From a virus, in IMG/VR virus record IMGVR_UViG_3300045941_000312, positions 1 through 28,118 of that record: a stretch of 28,118 bases of DNA, one strand, 5' to 3'. Positions 16,789 through 28,118 of this stretch are shown here, piece by piece. The translations under genes were made by a program, and so were the position numbers. The notes under the pieces were generated by a model. The model was not told the origin of the DNA. It was given only the letters and a program-made list of their open reading frames with translations, and did not search any database. Position 1 is the first letter of the stretch, and every line of letters begins with the position of its first letter.

Positions 16789-17997
16789 CTACCAGACACC
16801 TTGCGACGGAACGGCGGCGCGGTGGCGGACGGCTAAGGCGAGCGCCATCACACAGTCGTCGTGCATCCCCGGCGGCGCCTCGTAGCGGACGCCGGTTCGC
16901 GTATAGACGTACTCGAACGCCTCCAACTCCAACCGGATGACGCCGTCCGGGAACGCGACCTCGCGCCGGCCGATGGCGAGCGCCAGGCCCTCCATCAGTT
17001 GTTGCTTGGACGACGGCGAGAAGTGGAAGCCCTCGTACTGGTTCCAGCCAAGCGACTGCAGCGCCTCGACGATCGGGTCGCCGACGCCGGTGGAATCGAC
17101 CAGCGCTGGCGTGCGCCCACAGATGGCATGGATGTCCGTCACGGTCTGCTGCCAGGGCCGCTGGAATCGTTCCAGTCTGGCGGTTGTGCCTTCGGCATCG
17201 AGGCCGATGGCGACGGTCCAGTCGACGGACTTGGCAAGGTCAATGCCGAAGACGCTCGGCTCGTCCGGTGAGAGCGGAGCGACACACGCGGCGATGGCGT
17301 CCAGGCCAAAGGGATTGCCGCCGTCGTCGGACGCCTCGGCGAGGTACAGCTCGCGGAAGACGTGGTCGGGCAGCACGCGGCGGGCATCCTCGACCTCGGC
17401 GGCATCGAGCACGCCGGCGGCGACGGCATCATGGGCGGTGATGCGCGCGTAGGCCATGTCGGGCTCGCCGGATTCGGCGCGGCGGGCGAGGGCATAGAAC
17501 CAATTGCGGCGGCCCTTGACGTTGCCAATGATGCGCAGCGGCCCGCGGGTGGCGGTGAGGGTGGTACGGACGGCGTGGAAGGTCTCCTCCTTGACGCGCG
17601 AGCCCTCGTCGATGACGGCGGCGTAGACATCTTCGCCGTAGAGCGCGTCCGGGTTGTCGCCGCCCTTGAACCAGAGCACGGTGCCGTTTGCCAGGGTGAG
17701 GGTGAGCTCGGACTCATTGGCGACATACACCGCCGGCGGCAGGCCGCGCTTGATGCGGCGGAAGGGGATGCGCGCCTGCGAGTAGGTCGGGGCAATCCAC
17801 CAGAAGTTCTGGCCAGGCGTGCCCTGGACGGCCTGCTCCATCAGCCAGGCCATACAGGCCACGGTTTTTCCTGACTTGGTGGTCGCTTCACAAATGGCGT
17901 AGCGGGCGTCAGTGAAGAGCGCCGTTTGTTGGCGGTGGTAGAGCGGGGGCCGCTGGTAGGTCCAGGAGGTCGGGGCCGGCGTCGTCGTCGTGGACAC
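16789..17997 (-). CDS. Terminase large subunit
   Basis: This protein of about 402 residues is the packaging ATPase and nuclease. The ATPase shows Walker A ATTKSGKT (38-45) and Walker B VYAAVIDEGS (near 123-132), with the coupling motif following in GNVKGRR. The nuclease has Asp252 (FGIDLAKSVDW), Asp300 (ALVDSTGVGD) and the pair near 379-380 (MHDDCVMALALA). I chose the GTG at 17997, which has CGGAG six bases upstream. The open frame runs 150 codons further, but that part is arginine/proline-rich noise on the reverse of the small subunit's frame. The gene overlaps the small subunit by 89 bases. At about 400 residues it is compact but complete. Confidence 0.93.
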   Translation of the reverse strand: MSTTTTPAPTSWTYQRPPLYHRQQTALFTDARYAICEATTKSGKTVACMAWLMEQAVQGTPGQNFWWIAPTYSQARIPFRRIKRGLPPAVYVANESELTLTLANGTVLWFKGGDNPDALYGEDVYAAVIDEGSRVKEETFHAVRTTLTATRGPLRIIGNVKGRRNWFYALARRAESGEPDMAYARITAHDAVAAGVLDAAEVEDARRVLPDHVFRELYLAEASDDGGNPFGLDAIAACVAPLSPDEPSVFGIDLAKSVDWTVAIGLDAEGTTARLERFQRPWQQTVTDIHAICGRTPALVDSTGVGDPIVEALQSLGWNQYEGFHFSPSSKQQLMEGLALAIGRREVAFPDGVIRLELEAFEYVYTRTGVRYEAPPGMHDDCVMALALAVRHRAAVPSQGVW

Positions 17998-18340
17998 GGG
18001 CAGCTCCGAGGTCGAGCGAGAAGGTGATGGCACCGGAGTGTTTGATTTCGAGCGCCTGGCGGCCGTAGTCGGCGGCGTGGCGGTGTTCGAGCAACCAGAC
18101 GGCGGCGGGCCAGGTGCCCTGGGCGGCGGCCTTCTCGACCATGCCGAGCCACCTGGCCGCGGCCTGGGCTTCGGCCCGTTCGACCTTCTCCGAAAAACCC
18201 GGCTTGGTTTTGCACCAGGTTTCGAAGGTGTCCTGCGAGATGCCGGAGCCGAGGGCGGCGAGGCGGCGGGTGGCGCCGATGCCAAGCGCCGCCATGATCT
18301 GCTTCTCGCGGGCGGGCGACCACTTGGTTGGGCGCGGCAC
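17909..18340 (-). CDS. Terminase small subunit
   Basis: This 143-residue protein would recognise the phage packaging site and recruit the large subunit. Residues 10-60 form a helix-turn-helix region (KQIMAALGIGATRRLAALGS, then ISQDTFETWCKTKPGFSEKV). A helical oligomerisation part follows (RAEAQAAARWLGMVEKAAAQG, then PAAVWLLEHRHAADYGRQ). The phrase pairing a terminal WLLEHR with YGRQ is typical of small terminases. The start is GTG with GGAGGAG upstream, inside the end of the previous gene. It overlaps the large subunit by 89 bases. The C-terminal proline/aspartate tail lies in this overlap. Confidence 0.9.
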   Translation of the reverse strand: MPRPTKWSPAREKQIMAALGIGATRRLAALGSGISQDTFETWCKTKPGFSEKVERAEAQAAARWLGMVEKAAAQGTWPAAVWLLEHRHAADYGRQALEIKHSGAITFSLDLGAARVHDDDAGPDLLDLPAAPALPPPTNGALH

Positions 18341-18346
18341 GGGACG

Positions 18347-18538
18347 CTACTCCTCCGGGGCCGGCGGTGTCTCCGGTGGGGGGCCTGGGGCGATGAAGGT
18401 GGAGCCATCCTCACGGCGCCACATCCAGAGGCCCGCCGGGTCATGGAACTGCTGGAGGACGGGGGTATCGGTAGCGGTGGGGGTATCGGTCTCGATCGTT
18501 GCCGCGGGGGTGGTGGTGGACTCAGCGTCAGTGGTCAT
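18347..18538 (-). CDS. Small unrecognised protein before terminase
   Basis: This 63-residue protein starts with a threonine-rich, probably unstructured stretch (TTDAESTTTPAATIETDTPT). It ends with a short ordered core: FHDPAGLWMWRREDGSTFIA, then a proline-rich tail. Its last codons contain the ribosome binding site of the small terminase. The start overlaps the end of the methyltransferase gene by 11 bases. No function can be assigned. Confidence 0.5.
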   Translation of the reverse strand: MTTDAESTTTPAATIETDTPTATDTPVLQQFHDPAGLWMWRREDGSTFIAPGPPPETPPAPEE

Positions 18539-20543: not shown

Positions 20544-20846
20544 TTACCTCCGGGTAAGGGATGCGGCGAGTTCGTCCCAGTCAGCGGGCTTCCACAGGTA
20601 CGTTTCGACGCCAGGGCAGCGGGCCAAATCGGCGAGCCAGGCGACCTGGGCGGGGGTGGGGCGGCCGGCGGCGGATTTGAGCTCACAGAAGATGACGCGT
20701 GGAGCGCGAACCAGGACCAGGTCTGGGAAGCCGTGCGGCGAGCGGCGGCTGTCGTAGGTATGAAAGACCTTCCAGCCGGCGAGGCGGGCGAGGGCGGTGA
20801 CCTGGGCCTGGAACTGCTTTTCGGACAGGGGCAGTGGGGTGGTCAC
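20544..20846 (-). CDS. VRR-NUC domain nuclease
   Basis: This 100-residue protein has the compact PD-(D/E)XK pattern of stand-alone VRR-NUC nucleases: EKQFQAQVTALARLAGWKVF, then SPHGFPDLVLVRAPRVIFCE with LKSAAGRPTPAQ. The Asp of FPDL and the E-x-K of CELK are the catalytic residues (about 44 and 55-57). C-terminal strands are VETYLWKPADW. In phages such enzymes lie near replication genes and are thought to cut branched DNA. Its start overlaps the stop of the upstream gene. Its TAA lies in the next gene's ribosome binding site. Confidence 0.88.
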   Translation of the reverse strand: MTTPLPLSEKQFQAQVTALARLAGWKVFHTYDSRRSPHGFPDLVLVRAPRVIFCELKSAAGRPTPAQVAWLADLARCPGVETYLWKPADWDELAASLTRR

Positions 20847-21781
20847 CGAACCACCGCGAAGACATCCGCCCGCGGACGTTTCAGCGGCTTCGACTCCGGG
20901 CCCTTCACATGAGGCACGACCCAGGTCACGCGCGCGCCGTTCTCAATGCGGCGCCAGTGGCCGCGTACCAGCCACCGGCAGGACCAGTCAACCGTGCGGC
21001 GCGCATCGGACAGATCACGCTCATACGCGCGCCGGCGCAGTTCGATCACGCGCACCTCAGCCGGGTCATCACGCGTGAGGGCGAGCCGTCGCCGGGTCGC
21101 TCGGTCCGCTCGGACACGCCCCGCGGTCACAATCCGCTGATGGATAAATGAGAAGCACGCAGCCGCATAGCGGAGCTTCATCGTCATGCGATCCGCTTTG
21201 ACGGAATCAGCAACCTGGCCATGCAGCTGTTCCATCACCCGTGACAGTGGCTCACCGATGATCCAATCCGCCATCGTGAAGGGCGCAGGGATCGCTGCAC
21301 CTCGAACATCGAGATAGAACACAAAGCGCAGGCGCTCACCTTCATATGCGCGCAACCCCTCACCAAACGGCATGAACGCGCGCCCCTCCTGCTCTACGAC
21401 GTTCGCCCAACTCACTGCGCGCAACGGCGCGACATGGTCAGGGTGATCCGGTAACGGCAGCGGTGACGCGAACCAGAAGAATCCGTAGGCGTCTGGGATC
21501 ACCTCCTCAGACAGCGTCCAATCTGGGATCGCAGGCGCGGCATCCTGAACGAGCGTCAGCGGCACACCAGACCAGTAGTACGGGGCACCCTGCATCAGTG
21601 ATGCCAGCGTTGCTGACCGGAATGACTGTTCTACGGTGTTCGCATCCATCGCCGGTCGGTCATGTGGGCTGAGGTTTCCCATCACATCACGGAACCACCG
21701 GCGCCCGTTCGGGTTGTCGGTGAGCCAATCCACCAGCGCGGCCCGTTGTTCCAATGCATCGCTGAATCGCGCATCGATCAC
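20843..21781 (-). CDS. Unknown 312-residue protein, possibly AcrVA2-like
   Basis: I cannot place this protein with confidence. It has an N-terminal helical part. Aromatic-rich strands follow (PDWTLSEEVIPDAYGFFWFA; RLRFVFYLDVRGAAI). A long helix is MTMKLRYAAACFSFIHQRI. The basic C-terminus has WSCRWLVRGHWRR then WVVPHVKGPESKPL. The R-G-H-W motif and the order of parts recall actinobacterial mobile-element proteins and, more weakly, the C-terminus of anti-CRISPR AcrVA2; that comparison is from memory. The DNA is less GC-rich than its neighbours (58-62% in two 60-base samples, against about 80% at 19621-19680), suggesting recent gain. It starts at a GTG overlapping the primase stop (GTGA). Confidence 0.7.
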   Translation of the reverse strand: MIDARFSDALEQRAALVDWLTDNPNGRRWFRDVMGNLSPHDRPAMDANTVEQSFRSATLASLMQGAPYYWSGVPLTLVQDAAPAIPDWTLSEEVIPDAYGFFWFASPLPLPDHPDHVAPLRAVSWANVVEQEGRAFMPFGEGLRAYEGERLRFVFYLDVRGAAIPAPFTMADWIIGEPLSRVMEQLHGQVADSVKADRMTMKLRYAAACFSFIHQRIVTAGRVRADRATRRRLALTRDDPAEVRVIELRRRAYERDLSDARRTVDWSCRWLVRGHWRRIENGARVTWVVPHVKGPESKPLKRPRADVFAVVR

Positions 21782-23427
21782 ACCGGCACCGCCTCGTCCT
21801 GCAGCGCATCAGCGAGATGGGGCAGGCACACGTCGCCCACCGACAGCGGCGCATCCGGGTCACAGACACAGCAGGGGGGCCGCTTTTCGCAACTTGCGTA
21901 AGAGGGAAAACGGAGCGGAAGGGAACGATCTTCCTGTTTCGCAAGTTGCGAAAAGCGGAATCCGGCCGGGTAGAGTTCGGTTCCATCGCGGGTGACGGCG
22001 GCCAGGGGGAGGCCGCACTCGCCGCAGCGGGCGACATGGACGGACTCCAACCGGACGGTGAGGTCGACGTCGCCGTCCTGGGGGCAGGGCAGCGGCTGGT
22101 CGGTGAGGTCGGGCACGGGGACGCTCGATGGCGGCGCCTTCCGAATCGTGCTGCGCTTCGCTTTGACCAGGCAGTCAGGGACGGACTCGGCGAAGACGTG
22201 GAGCGTCTCGGCGAGGCGCTGGTGGGTGGGAACGATCCGGATGTAGGGCCGCGGGCCGTCGGTGACTTCACCCGTGTAGGGATTGGCGGGGAGGTAGTGG
22301 GTGGTCTTGGTGAGCGACCCGTCCGTGATGCGCGCATCACGGGCACGGATCAGGGTGTACTCGGAGACGTGCGCGCGGCGGGCGATGGCCGGGAGACTGA
22401 TGAAGGGCACGCGGCGTATGGGGGCGTGCACCTCGTAGGCGAGCACGAGTTGGGCGACTTTAAAACTGGGGGAGGCGGCGGAGTAGATCAGCGCGCGGGT
22501 CGTACGGCTGAGGGCCTTGAGCGCCGACACGTCGGGCGGGTCGTCCGCGCTGCAGCGGCAGTCCGGATGTGGGGTGGGTGGCGCCTGGGCCGCGAGGGCG
22601 GCGATCGCGGTGAAGTGGCGCGGGGTCCAGTCCTGATCAAACCAGTCGGAGGCGTCGCCACGCTCGGAGAGTCCGGGGAGTCGCACGATCGTGACCGATG
22701 CCGCGGAGCCGTCGAGTGCGCGGGCGACCGCCTCTGCGTGGCGGCGGCCGGCCTCGTCCTCGTCGGGCACGACCAGCACATGGTGGCCGCGCAGCACGGA
22801 GGCTGCCGCCGCCCGCCACTTGCCGGCGCCACCACTGTTACACGTGGCATGGAAGCCGAGTGACCGGAAGCGGTCGACGTCCTTCTCGCCCTCGGCCGCG
22901 ATCACGGTGGAGCCGGGTGGGAGTGCGGCGATCTCGTCCTGGTGATAGAGGCGGGGCGCGACGCCGTCGAGGTTCCAGATCCACGCCCCATCACGGTCGG
23001 GGGCCGGCCGGCGCTGGCGGAACGTCTTTGACCCATCGGGGAGCCTGAGCCGCACGACCTGATAGTGGCCGTCGTAGTCGTAGATGGCCTCAATCGTGCC
23101 GTGCGGACGCTCGGCCTTCCGCGGTTTGGCCCAGGTGCGGCCGGCCTGGGCCGATGCGCGGGTGGCCTGGCGCATCGCCGCATCGAAGGCATCGGCGCCG
23201 TGGTCGTGGCCGCATGGACAGCGACCGAGCAGCCGGTGGGCGTAGCCGGATGAGCCGCCGTTCAGGGGCAGCCGGCCAGCCAGTTCCGCCCGCGTACAGT
23301 GCGCGTACACCCCATCCGAACTGAGAAAGCCCCAGCAGCGCACGCCCTGATGACGGGGCATGTCCTGGTGGGAGCCACACACGGGGCAGGGCGACTCGGC
23401 TGAGAAACGGCGAACGGCATCAGACAT
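21778..23427 (-). CDS. Phage primase with zinc finger and TOPRIM domain
   Basis: This 549-residue protein has a zinc-finger region first (CPVCGSHQDMPRH; RCPCGHDHG at about 70). A TOPRIM domain follows: VIAAEGEKDVDRF near 174-186 and VLVVPDEDEAGRR near 215-228, with the conserved Glu and the D-x-D. A winged-helix-like segment lies near 342-369 (SLPAIARRAHVSEYTLIRAR). The C-terminus has more cysteine pairs (CGECG; CCVCDPD). No helicase motifs are visible, so it likely makes or regulates RNA primers only. The ATG at 23427 has GAGGGG upstream. Two stem-loops lie just ahead. An inverted repeat lies within its 3' part, at about residues 490-516. Confidence 0.82.
   Translation of the reverse strand: MSDAVRRFSAESPCPVCGSHQDMPRHQGVRCWGFLSSDGVYAHCTRAELAGRLPLNGGSSGYAHRLLGRCPCGHDHGADAFDAAMRQATRASAQAGRTWAKPRKAERPHGTIEAIYDYDGHYQVVRLRLPDGSKTFRQRRPAPDRDGAWIWNLDGVAPRLYHQDEIAALPPGSTVIAAEGEKDVDRFRSLGFHATCNSGGAGKWRAAAASVLRGHHVLVVPDEDEAGRRHAEAVARALDGSAASVTIVRLPGLSERGDASDWFDQDWTPRHFTAIAALAAQAPPTPHPDCRCSADDPPDVSALKALSRTTRALIYSAASPSFKVAQLVLAYEVHAPIRRVPFISLPAIARRAHVSEYTLIRARDARITDGSLTKTTHYLPANPYTGEVTDGPRPYIRIVPTHQRLAETLHVFAESVPDCLVKAKRSTIRKAPPSSVPVPDLTDQPLPCPQDGDVDLTVRLESVHVARCGECGLPLAAVTRDGTELYPAGFRFSQLAKQEDRSLPLRFPSYASCEKRPPCCVCDPDAPLSVGDVCLPHLADALQDEAVPV
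21880..21958. repeat. Perfect 19-bp inverted repeat of two palindromes in the primase gene
   Basis: Arms at 21880-21898 and 21940-21958 are exact reverse complements (CCGCTTTTCGCAACTTGCG), separated by 41 bases. Each arm also holds a palindrome: TTTCGCAA-C-TTGCG and TTTCGCAA-G-TTGCGAAA, so the same 14-base motif also appears as a direct repeat (21885-21898 and 21937-21950). It is AT-rich compared with the neighbourhood and lies in a coding region. It may be a protein-binding site, an origin element or a small insertion. No target-site duplication is seen. Confidence 0.85.
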
Positions 23428-23541: not shown

Positions 23542-24627
23542 TTAGTCGAAGGCGGCGACCACGGCGACCGTCTCCGACAGCGCCGCCACCAGTTCGTCGG
23601 CCTGGGCGAGCGAGAGCTGCCCAGGCCCGCGGCGGAACTCGTCCTGACAGCGCTCAATCAATTGCTGGTCGCTGATGCCGGCATCGCCGGCTAAGGCCGC
23701 GATCATCTGCCGGTGCTCAGCGGTGAGCGGCATCACGTCCACGCGCCGGCAGGGCGGCGAGCCGGCCCCGAGGCTGTGGCGCCAGGCGGACGCCTCCTGG
23801 TCCGGACCAAGCACCCACTGCCGGGGCGCGTGGTCGGGGCACGACTCAAAGGCGAGCAGGAAACGGCCGCCCTTCGGATTGGGCAGCGTGATGCAGCGCA
23901 GACCGCCCACCAGCCACACCGCTGCGTCACTGCCGTCACGGTCGGTGACGGTCTCGTCCGTTGCGACCGCCTCCGGGTGCGGCAGCTTCACGGCCGGCGG
24001 TTCGTTGGCCAACCACGGCGCCGCCTGGGTCGCGGACTGCCCGATGAGCTCGGCCGGGTCCGGCATCTCCTCAGCCGGGTCCGACACCGACGCCGCCTTC
24101 GGCACGCTGATGACATGCCCCTCGCCGTCCACCACCGCACCGAGCTCCTCCGGTGTGTAGACCACGCCGCCGAAGATGTCGGCGCAGTACCAGCGCGCGC
24201 CATTGGACATCGCCCGCGCGAACAACAGGTTGCGGGGATACTGGGTCCACACCTTGTTCGTGCTGGGCAACCCGGCGCGGCGGGCATCGGCCATCGTGAA
24301 GGTGCTGACGCCGGCGCGTTCGCCCCGGTAGACGAACTCGATCGAGCACTCGTCATCGGTGTGGGTGAGCACGCGGTAGTCGTAGGCAGTGCTGCGGCGG
24401 ATGACGGAGGCGATCAGGCCGGCCGAGGGCGCCGGCTTGCCCTGGATGATGTGAATACCGACCAGCGACGCAATGGCGGAAATGCCCATCTCCTGGCCGT
24501 ACAGAATCTTGGTCACGGCCTGGGCCTGGGTCTTCGCATCGGTGAAGTAGCCGGACTGGGCCAGCACCTGGCCGAGCGTCATCAGGTCAAGGCCGGCATC
24601 AGCGGGGATGAGGGACTGGGATGTCAT
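23542..24627 (-). CDS. RecT-like single-strand annealing protein
   Basis: Residues 1-190 of this 361-residue protein follow the pattern of phage RecT-like recombinases: LGQVLAQSGYFTDAKTQAQA, YGQEMGISAIASLVGIHIIQ, GKPAPSAGLIASVI, STFTMADARRAGL, and RNLLFARAMSNGARWYCADI followed by FGGVVYTPEELG. These form the annealing core that pairs complementary strands. The C-terminal 170 residues are different, with a few cysteines, and look like an added regulatory part (LSLAQADELVAALSE at the end). The ATG at 24627 has AAGGAG six bases upstream. No 5'-3' exonuclease partner is visible next to it. The nearest nuclease is the VRR-NUC gene. Confidence 0.75.
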   Translation of the reverse strand: MTSQSLIPADAGLDLMTLGQVLAQSGYFTDAKTQAQAVTKILYGQEMGISAIASLVGIHIIQGKPAPSAGLIASVIRRSTAYDYRVLTHTDDECSIEFVYRGERAGVSTFTMADARRAGLPSTNKVWTQYPRNLLFARAMSNGARWYCADIFGGVVYTPEELGAVVDGEGHVISVPKAASVSDPAEEMPDPAELIGQSATQAAPWLANEPPAVKLPHPEAVATDETVTDRDGSDAAVWLVGGLRCITLPNPKGGRFLLAFESCPDHAPRQWVLGPDQEASAWRHSLGAGSPPCRRVDVMPLTAEHRQMIAALAGDAGISDQQLIERCQDEFRRGPGQLSLAQADELVAALSETVAVVAAFD

Positions 24628-24638
24628 AGCGAACTCCT

Positions 24639-24779
24639 TCATGGCAACCGCCCGCTGACCAGGGCCATGGCGAGTGCGGCGAGCAGCCAGCCGAGCGCCG
24701 GCACGAGCAGCCACAGCGCCGCGGCGGCGAGCCACTCCCACACGGCCTCGGCGGCGTCGGCTTCATCACGTGGCGTCAT
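24639..24779 (-). CDS. Small membrane protein
   Basis: A short acidic start (MTPRDEADAAEAVWEW) is followed by a long hydrophobic stretch (LAAAALWLLVPALGWLLAAL, continuing AMALVSG) that can span the membrane once or as a hairpin. It totals 46 residues. The ATG at 24779 overlaps the DNA methyltransferase stop (ATGA), so translation is probably coupled. Possible roles include holin-like or superinfection protein; none is proven. Confidence 0.55.
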   Translation of the reverse strand: MTPRDEADAAEAVWEWLAAAALWLLVPALGWLLAALAMALVSGRLP

Positions 24780-26653: not shown

Positions 26654-27055
26654 ATGGTGGGCGTGGCGGCACCTGAGATCGGCATCCGCGTGCGGCGGTT
26701 ACGTGCGGAATTGGGCTGGACGCAAGGCCAGCTCGCCGTGCAGGCGTCCCACAAAGGACCGCAGGAGATCTCGCGCGGGTGGCTCTCGCAGGTTGAGTCC
26801 GGCGACATCGATAAGCCGGAGGCCGGTCGCCTCAATCAACTTGCGCTCGCGCTCGGAACGACCGTCGATTACCTGATGAACGGGCCGGCGCCGGACGGCT
26901 CCGTCACGCTGACCGTGCCCGAAAATGTCGCCCCCCGCCTCAACCGGCTCAAGGATGTCCCCGGCGACGTGCTCGATGCGCTCGAACACCTCGTCGCCCG
27001 CACCCATCTACGCCAGCCAGACGCCGACGAGCACGCCGAGCGTGAACGCGAGTAG
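26654..27055 (+). CDS. Xre-family repressor (CI-like)
   Basis: This 133-residue protein has a Xre HTH over residues 8-75: IGIRVRRLRAELGWTQGQLA, EISRGWLSQVESGDIDKPEA, then LNQLALALGTTVDYLM. The C-terminus is a short helical part (APRLNRLKDVPGDVLDALEH) and a charged tail. There is no LexA-like peptidase domain, so release would not rely on self-cleavage. It diverges from the Cro-like gene and lies next to the integrase, as a lysogeny repressor should. The ATG is three bases after operator 2, with no ribosome binding site; a leaderless start is likely. An in-frame GTG at 26663 is an alternative start. Its last codons lie opposite a small membrane ORF. Confidence 0.8.
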   Translation: MVGVAAPEIGIRVRRLRAELGWTQGQLAVQASHKGPQEISRGWLSQVESGDIDKPEAGRLNQLALALGTTVDYLMNGPAPDGSVTLTVPENVAPRLNRLKDVPGDVLDALEHLVARTHLRQPDADEHAERERE

Positions 27056-27152: not shown

Positions 27153-28118
27153 ATGCCGCGCCGCTCCCCCGCCACCGGCCAGGTCTTTTACAAACAGGCA
27201 ACGCGGCAGTGGGTGATCCGCGCACATGGCGTCGAACGCACCAGCAAAGCCTGGCGCACGCGCAGAGATGCTACCCAGGCGCTTGAGACGCTGCTGGCGG
27301 CCTTCGCCCAGCCGCAGACGCCTCCACCATCACCGGCCCTCACTCTGGGTGATTACCTGCCCGCCTGGCTCGCCGGCATCCGTCACCGTCTGCGCCCCAC
27401 ATCGCTCCTCACCTATGACGCCGCCCTCGCCATGTGGCTCCCAACCCTCGGCGCCTGTCCACTGGACCAGCTCACCCCCCAGCACTGCCGCCGCGCCCTC
27501 GCCGACCTGCTGTCGCCCGAATCCCCCGGCGTGCGTGCCTATGCCCCATCCACCGTCGTCAAGGCCCGCGCGATTCTCTCGATGGCCCTCGCCGATGCCG
27601 TTGATGACGAGCTCATCCCGCGCAACCCACTGCGCCGCGTGCCGCCGCCACGCATCCCCGAGCGCGAGCCGCGGCCCTTCACCGTACCTGAAGTCCGCCG
27701 CATCCTGCAGAGTGTCCAGCACACACCGCTGGTCGCCGCGGTCACCCTGGCCTGCTGCTACGGCCTGCGCGCCGGCGAGGTCGCAGGACTTCAGTGGGCC
27801 GATATCACCGAAACGTCCGTGTCCATTCAGCGTCAGCACCCAGGCACCGGTGTCGGCCACCGGGCCACCAAGACGCCGGCCGCCACCCGCAGCCTGCCGC
27901 TGATTCCCCTGGTCGCCGCGGCGCTCGCCCAACAGCGGACCCTGCAGGACGCGTCGCAGTACGTCGTCGGCGTCCGGCGTGAATCGCTCGGAAGGCAATG
28001 GCGGCAGCACGTCCAGGCGGCAGGCATCCCGCGGCGCACCTTCCACGAGCTGCGTCACGCCGCCGTCACGCTGCTCGCATCACTCGGCGTTGATGAGCAG
28101 GTGCGGATGATGGTGGTG
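27153..28118 (+). CDS. int: Tyrosine integrase, 3' end beyond the window
   Basis: The first 322 codons of the phage integrase are present. The N-terminal 60 residues are a basic arm-binding-like segment (GQVFYKQATRQWVIRAHGVE). Residues 63-165 are the core-binding domain (LTLGDYLPAWLAGIRHRL...). The catalytic domain shows Arg206 (YGLRAGEVAGLQW), Lys240 (TKTPAATRSLPL), and His298/Arg301 (FHELRHAAVTLLASLGV). The final Tyr lies outside the window. The ATG at 27153 has GAGGTG four bases upstream. It is co-directional with the repressor, 97 bases downstream. It integrates the phage and, with the HTH protein, excises it. The attachment site is not visible here. Confidence 0.93.
   Translation, partial: MPRRSPATGQVFYKQATRQWVIRAHGVERTSKAWRTRRDATQALETLLAAFAQPQTPPPSPALTLGDYLPAWLAGIRHRLRPTSLLTYDAALAMWLPTLGACPLDQLTPQHCRRALADLLSPESPGVRAYAPSTVVKARAILSMALADAVDDELIPRNPLRRVPPPRIPEREPRPFTVPEVRRILQSVQHTPLVAAVTLACCYGLRAGEVAGLQWADITETSVSIQRQHPGTGVGHRATKTPAATRSLPLIPLVAAALAQQRTLQDASQYVVGVRRESLGRQWRQHVQAAGIPRRTFHELRHAAVTLLASLGVDEQVRMMVV

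What the first reader, a model, noticed from the sequence alone, without database searches (positions are those of the whole stretch)
21880..21958. Perfect 19-bp inverted repeat made of two palindromes inside the primase gene
The arms are exact and each holds a TTTCGCAA-N-TTGCG palindrome, so the same motif appears as direct and inverted repeat 52 bases apart. It is AT-rich in a GC-rich gene. Phage origins sometimes lie within replication genes (as in lambda O), so this could be the origin or a binding site for a phage protein. A miniature insertion element is the alternative; no target duplication is seen and the protein remains in frame.
Basis: partly seen in the sequence, partly recalled or inferred. 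Interest (0 to 1): 0.6.

Follow-up and report, generated by a model that had tools for sequence, protein, structure and literature searches.

The report
Likely phage replication origin inside primase
A perfect 19-base inverted repeat near the end of a phage's DNA-primase gene is probably the site where the phage starts copying its DNA; unrelated-looking repeats at the same place in dozens of other phages and some plasmids support this, but no experiment has tested it.

Summary
The 19-bp arms at 21880-21898 and 21940-21958 are perfect, each built on a CGCAA-N-TTGCG palindrome, 52 bp apart, inside the reverse-strand primase gene. Simulated windows never exceeded 13 bp. The half-site TTGCGWAA occurs exactly four times in the 34.6-kb phage genome, all in this element (0.6 expected).

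Close relatives are near-identical copies of the same phage, so arm conservation cannot be tested. I compared architecture instead. Among 75 non-redundant phage toprim-primase loci, an inverted repeat with arms of 11 bp or more lies at the primase gene's end in 21, against 14 of 595 other gene ends (p = 5e-13). The primase end is the most repeat-dense 600-bp bin of its locus in 46 of 75 (6 expected). Repeat sequences differ between phages, but the layout recurs: inverted repeat sets around a usually GC-poorer centre. Two cultured phages and three plasmids show it too. Published PICI origins have this layout, and the lambda origin has 19-bp dyad repeats inside gene O.

Most likely this is the initiator-binding core of the replication origin, embedded in the primase gene (about 0.68). 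A mobile palindrome is disfavoured (no other copies found); an intrinsic terminator does not fit. Origin function itself is inferred.

The parts
21880..21898 (.). left arm of the perfect 19-bp inverted repeat (CCGCTTTTCGCAACTTGCG)
21940..21958 (.). right arm of the perfect 19-bp inverted repeat (CGCAAGTTGCGAAAAGCGG)
21885..21901 (.). left palindromic unit TTTCGCAACTTGCGTAA, two half-sites (proposed initiator dimer site)
   Evidence: binding is inferred
21937..21953 (.). right palindromic unit TTTCGCAAGTTGCGAAA, perfect 17-bp palindrome, two half-sites (proposed initiator dimer site)
   Evidence: (I6); binding is inferred
21899..21939 (.). 41-bp centre between the arms, 49% GC in a 68.5% GC genome (proposed melting region, inferred)
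21778..23427 (-). toprim primase gene (P0001, 549 aa; ORF open to 23532): toprim region aa about 110-265, C-terminal region with a by-eye winged-helix-like stretch and a CxxC/CxxC pair
21862..22026 (-). stretch from CGEC (22015-22026) to CCVC (21862-21873), a putative zinc ribbon whose loop is encoded by the element
   Evidence: sequence; only a very weak Pfam zinc-ribbon match (E 1.8), so inferred
20843..21781 (-). next gene downstream, overlapping the primase stop; phrog_15934, unknown function
23542..24741 (-). RecT-like annealing protein gene upstream in the same replication/recombination module

Best explanation
The element is the initiator-binding core of the phage's replication origin, embedded in the 3' part of its own primase gene. 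Two palindromic iterons (each two half-sites TTGCGWAA, so suited to a protein dimer) in mirror orientation flank a 41-bp stretch that is GC-poor for this genome. The primase protein itself, or a partner, would bind the two palindromes, distort or melt the DNA there, and load the replication machinery, with the toprim domain making primers. The DNA also encodes 25-26 residues, apparently a loop between two CxxC pairs, so the origin is carried without breaking the protein. Shown: the repeat, its non-randomness, the exclusive clustering of half-sites, its place at the primase 3' end, and the strong association of such arrays with that place in other phages and plasmids. Inferred: binding by this protein, melting, and origin activity.
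For: Perfect 19-bp inverted repeat, at most 13 bp in simulations. All four TTGCGWAA sites of the 34,579-bp genome lie in the element, 0.6 expected. In 75 non-redundant phage toprim-primase loci, inverted repeats with arms of 11 bp or more lie at the primase end in 21/75 against 14/595 other ORF ends, p = 5e-13; the primase end is the most repeat-dense bin in 46/75, about 6 expected. The hypothesis was written down before 62 of those loci were fetched; these give 42/62. The centre is GC-poorer than the locus in 17 of 21. Repeated similar palindromes: 13/75 against 29/877 control bins, p = 6e-6. L279 is a close analogue: TGACGAGTTAACCCGTCA and TGACTAGTTAACTCGTCA around a TATATTTT-containing centre, 84 bp. 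In-gene cases exist: L317, L276, part of L304. The pattern recurs in Rhizobium phage RHph_Y3_1, Salinibacter phage M1EM-1 and Roseomonas, Komagataeibacter and Salinibacter plasmids. PICI origins lie immediately 3' of the initiator gene, with two iteron sets flanking an AT-rich region, and pri-rep-ori plasmids replicate (PMC6092414). The lambda origin lies in gene O, with four 19-bp inverted-repeat iterons and a 40-bp A+T-rich region (PMC5043065, PMC4488673).
Against: No relative with a diverged copy of this primase C-terminus exists in the collections, so conservation of the arms against silent sites is untested. Each arm holds one palindrome, fewer repeats than most analogues; by the 8-mer measure the site ranks second of 46 bins in the window. 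Most analogues start at or after the stop codon; this one lies 103-181 bp before it. The protein has no recognised helicase or DNA-binding domain, and the AlphaFold model of the C-terminus was useless (pLDDT 30). Cumulative GC skew has no turning point at the element (maximum 26.3 kb, minimum 11.9 kb), though one-directional transcription could mask it. The centre is not absolutely AT-rich. About 40% of primase loci lack a detectable array.
Confidence: 0.68

Rival explanations
1. A regulatory DNA site rather than an origin: two operators for the phage repressor or for autoregulation of the replication module, looping DNA or blocking transcription within the primase gene.
For: Paired palindromes are typical of dimeric repressors; an HTH_31 repressor-like gene lies at 26654-27055.
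Against: No further copy of the motif near the repressor gene or any start of an operon; no promoter-like site in 21600-22200; the strong association of such arrays with primase 3' ends is not explained.
Confidence: 0.12
2. A miniature mobile palindrome inserted in frame into a protein loop, comparable in outcome to Rickettsia palindromic elements.
For: Whole element is one long imperfect hairpin, AT-richer than its gene, in a loop between two CxxC pairs; removing 75 bp with a 2-bp CG repeat would restore the frame (by eye).
Against: Single copy in the phage; found only in the same phage among viral contigs; no exact paired match in 84,980 species genomes; single motifs in viral contigs near chance and unpaired; 400 Chloroflexota genomes show no enrichment.
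Confidence: 0.09
3. An RNA element: the hairpin acts in the mRNA to modulate translation or stability at the primase/downstream-gene overlap, or ends transcription.
For: Very stable fold on both strands (-44 and -51 kcal/mol, z about -6).
Against: Large 41-nt loop and no T-run after the 19-bp stem; the only terminator-like match is a weak 5-bp stem inside the loop; no Rfam match; palindromic half-site structure is unnecessary for an RNA hairpin.
Confidence: 0.08
4. Another phage DNA site: packaging (cos/pac), attachment or resolution site.
For: Such sites can contain inverted repeats (general knowledge).
Against: Integrase is 5 kb away at 27153-28118 and terminase 3.3 kb away at 16789-18444, whereas att and cos usually adjoin those genes (general knowledge).
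Confidence: 0.03

Closest known systems
PICI/SaPI pri-rep-ori origins (PMC6092414)
   Same: Origin at the 3' end of the primase/initiator gene; two mirrored sets of repeats flank an AT-richer centre; repeat sequence is specific to each replicon.
   Different: Published PICI origins lie after the gene; here the site is inside the coding region and each side has one palindrome, not several iterons. This is a phage with capsid, tail and terminase genes, not a satellite.
Phage lambda origin within gene O (PMC5043065, PMC4488673)
   Same: Origin DNA lies inside a replication gene; about 19-bp dyad-symmetric repeats suited to protein dimers; neighbouring about 40-bp region richer in A+T.
   Different: Lambda has four iterons on one side of the A+T-rich region; here one palindrome on each side. 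Lambda O is an initiator without primase; here the gene is a toprim primase.
Iteron arrays at toprim-primase 3' ends in phages and plasmids found here (L279, L280, L291, L333, L369, L373, L376)
   Same: Location, span (about 80-140 bp) and mirrored repeats around a usually GC-poorer centre.
   Different: Repeat sequences unrelated; most arrays begin at or after the stop codon.
Rickettsia palindromic elements and other MITE-like palindromes (from memory)
   Same: Palindromic DNA read in frame in a protein.
   Different: Those are dispersed in many copies; this has one.

Membership tests
Iteron-type replication origin (lambda / PICI kind) | multiple specific repeats clustered at one place in the replicon | tested here: met
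   four half-sites TTGCGWAA, all four of the genome within 21885-21953
Iteron-type replication origin (lambda / PICI kind) | linked to the initiator/primase gene | tested here: met
   inside the 3' part of the toprim primase gene
Iteron-type replication origin (lambda / PICI kind) | adjacent A+T-rich melting region | tested here: inconclusive
   centre 49% GC against 68.5% genome: GC-poor for the genome but not AT-rich in absolute terms
Iteron-type replication origin (lambda / PICI kind) | bound by the cognate initiator | not testable with these tools
   needs EMSA or footprinting
Iteron-type replication origin (lambda / PICI kind) | supports autonomous replication | not testable with these tools
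   needs a plasmid maintenance assay
PICI (phage satellite) | satellite lacking its own full structural gene set | tested here: not met
   window has terminase, capsid and other phage structural genes
[quoted passage not shown]
   mirrored units flank a GC-poorer centre, but inside the gene, 103-181 bp before the stop, one palindrome per side
Mobile palindromic element / MITE | multiple dispersed copies | tested here: not met
   one copy in the phage; no paired match in species genomes; the host itself is unknown
Mobile palindromic element / MITE | target-site duplication or empty site | tested here: inconclusive
   only a 2-bp CG direct repeat by eye; no relative without the element
Intrinsic terminator | short-loop GC hairpin followed by a T-run | tested here: not met
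   41-nt loop, no T-run after the 19-bp stem; only a weak 5-bp stem with T-rich tail inside the loop

The most novel reading that the evidence does not exclude
Phages and plasmids with this toprim-primase family generally carry a self-specific origin at the 3' end of the primase gene, the layout described in 2018 as shared by no known replicon other than PICIs, and here the origin DNA has been absorbed into the coding sequence, so the primase encodes its own origin as a protein loop.
Probability: 0.5. Interest if true: 0.6.

Novelty: new member of a known kind. Interest (0 to 1): 0.5.

Why it matters
If true, it locates the replication origin of an uncultured temperate phage from sequence alone and gives a simple rule (look at the 3' end of the toprim-primase gene) that applies to a large share of metagenomic phages and some plasmids. 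It would also mean that the origin layout reported as peculiar to phage satellites (PMC6092414) is common in ordinary phages and plasmids, which bears on where satellites got their replicons. Matched sets of primase and cognate repeats would make initiator-origin co-evolution testable.

Tried and rejected
Mobile-element reading tested by exact and paired motif scans of viral contigs and species genomes and by 400 Chloroflexota genomes: no family. A vague recollection that this palindrome is common in Chloroflexota was not borne out. The loose scan CGCAANTTGCG..CGCAANTTGCG gave over 100 loci, but the ones examined are ORF6N-like genes or unrelated tandem repeats. Homologues of the primase C-terminal half: none beyond two near-identical contigs. 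RecT neighbours from other phages carry no related primase. AlphaFold on the C-terminal 265 residues failed; Pfam, NCBIfam, PHROG and PDB searches found no DNA-binding domain there. GC skew gave no turning point at the element. Rfam and tRNA scans were empty. No phage record in INPHARED matches the element's DNA. The host was not identified.

Full report
WHAT IS THERE. The two arms at 21880-21898 and 21940-21958 are exact 19-bp reverse complements, 41 bp apart. Each contains the palindrome CGCAA-N-TTGCG; the right unit is a perfect 17-bp palindrome and the left one has a single edge mismatch. With mismatches the stem reaches 33 bp. In 60 Markov simulations of the window no perfect inverted repeat within 120 bp exceeded 13 bp, and it is the best inverted repeat of the whole window. 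The element has 53% GC in a 68.5% GC window and is in the lowest 0.3% of 80-bp stretches.

CONTEXT. The window is a whole virus record. It carries terminase, capsid, RecT-like annealing protein, VRR nuclease, methyltransferase and repressor-like genes and an integrase-like ORF at 27153-28118 (read by eye). Two further contigs are the same phage at 99.98% identity; one of them (G001, 34,706 bp) spans both window ends, so the phage map is circular with about 34,579 bp and the window lacks about 6.5 kb (circularity inferred from the overlap of ends). The gene containing the element is on the reverse strand, ends at 21778 and encodes a toprim primase: PHROG 6088 and 239 and an alignable toprim region with invariant AEGEKDVD. 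No helicase domain was recognised. The element lies between CGEC (22015-22026) and CCVC (21862-21873), so it seems to encode a loop of a C-terminal zinc ribbon; this is by eye, with only a very weak Pfam match.

SPECIFICITY. In the circular genome the half-site TTGCGWAA occurs exactly four times, all in the element; 0.6 are expected.

MOBILE ELEMENT TEST. The element has one copy in the phage. The paired motif with its TTTT flanks has no match in 84,980 species genomes. In 2.9 million viral contigs the paired motif is found only in the same phage and in one unrelated intergenic repeat, L109. The single motif TTTTCGCAASTTGCG has 107 hits, close to what I expect by chance, none with a partner except this phage. 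This disfavours a mobile family, though the host is unknown.

COMPARATIVE TEST. Because this primase's C-terminal half has no diverged relative, arm conservation cannot be tested. Instead I asked whether related primases have comparable DNA at their ends. In the first 16 relatives several had their strongest inverted repeat right at the primase stop codon: L280 has three TGCAAGGGT repeats mirrored by three; L279 has TGACGAGTTAACCCGTCA ... TGACTAGTTAACTCGTCA around a TATATTTT-containing centre; L273 and L274 have mirrored CATGTA or GGTGTA repeats around an AT-rich centre. I wrote the hypothesis down and then fetched 80 more loci. In 75 non-redundant loci, inverted repeats with arms of 11 bp or more (span 50-170 bp) lie within -150 to +200 of the primase stop in 21, against 14 of 595 other ORF ends (Fisher p = 5e-13). 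With arms of 16 bp or more it is 6 of 75 against 1 of 595. By a repeat-density measure the primase end is strictly the top 600-bp bin in 46 of 75, about 6 expected; in the 62 loci fetched after the hypothesis it is 42. The centre is GC-poorer than the locus in 17 of 21. Repeated similar palindromes occur in 13 of 75 primase ends and 29 of 877 control bins (p = 6e-6). In the window itself the element is the best inverted repeat but second of 46 bins by the density measure.

INDEPENDENT RECORDS. Of eight annotated records chosen from the hit lists, five show arrays at the primase end: Rhizobium phage RHph_Y3_1 (TTGGGAACG-type repeats), Salinibacter phage M1EM-1 (one 13-bp inverted repeat), and the Roseomonas, Komagataeibacter and Salinibacter pSR14 plasmids. 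A plasmid that lives on this primase gene must have an origin, which makes these arrays natural candidates.

IN-GENE PRECEDENT. L317 (-140 to -60 before the stop), L276 and part of L304 have arrays inside the coding region, so the window's position is unusual but not unique.

MECHANISM. Most likely the two palindromes are binding sites of an initiator dimer, either the primase protein through its C-terminal region or a partner, and the GC-poor 41-bp centre is opened for helicase loading and priming. Shown: anatomy, non-randomness, association with the primase end. Inferred: binding, opening and origin function.

WHAT IS KNOWN. [quoted passage not shown] The lambda origin lies inside gene O and consists of 19-bp inverted-repeat iterons binding O dimers next to a 40-bp A+T-rich region (PMC5043065, PMC4488673). 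From memory, origins near the primase gene were also described for phages such as Sfi21 and P4; the library held no paper to confirm it. The window's element works like these and differs in being inside a primase gene with one palindrome on each side.

LIMITS. The AlphaFold model failed, no DNA-binding domain is recognised, GC skew does not turn at the element, and the host is unknown. The 75 loci were taken by similarity to the toprim region and are not a random sample of phages; some could be satellites rather than full phages.

Noticed in passing
L125, L134, L142, L157, L164, L173, L178, L183, L187, L195, L213 and others: Genes whose products read like ORF6N-domain proteins (by eye, '...PYAFTEQG') in Bacteroidales, Clostridia, Treponema and others carry two or three palindromes such as AAGGTCGCAATTTGCGACCTT that encode repeated SQ(I/F)ATS motifs; repeat number and spacing vary between genomes.
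   Followed up: partly
L280:5954-6079, L291, L333, L348, L373: Very strong mirrored iteron arrays (arms of 20-31 bp) directly at the end of toprim-primase genes in other phages and in a 9.7-kb Roseomonas plasmid; candidate origins.
   Followed up: yes
L109:2249-2318: Unrelated viral contig with CTTCGCAAGTTGCGCTGCC ... GGCAGCGCAACTTGCGAAG in an intergenic stretch just before an ATG; same core palindrome pair as the window.
   Followed up: partly
L147:7303-7360: CGCAASTTGCG palindromes on both sides of a promoter-like stretch (TTGACA ... TACAAT) in a Clostridia genome, by eye like paired operators.
   Followed up: no
L112:10247-10319 and L119:1293-1365: Two viral contigs with paired CGCAASTTGCGTAA palindromes 62 bp apart; flanks differ, function unknown.
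   Followed up: no
window 1-28118 against G001 (34706 bp): The window is an incomplete, differently cut copy of a circular map of about 34,579 bp; about 6.5 kb, including an amidase-like lysin gene (by eye), is missing from it.
   Followed up: partly
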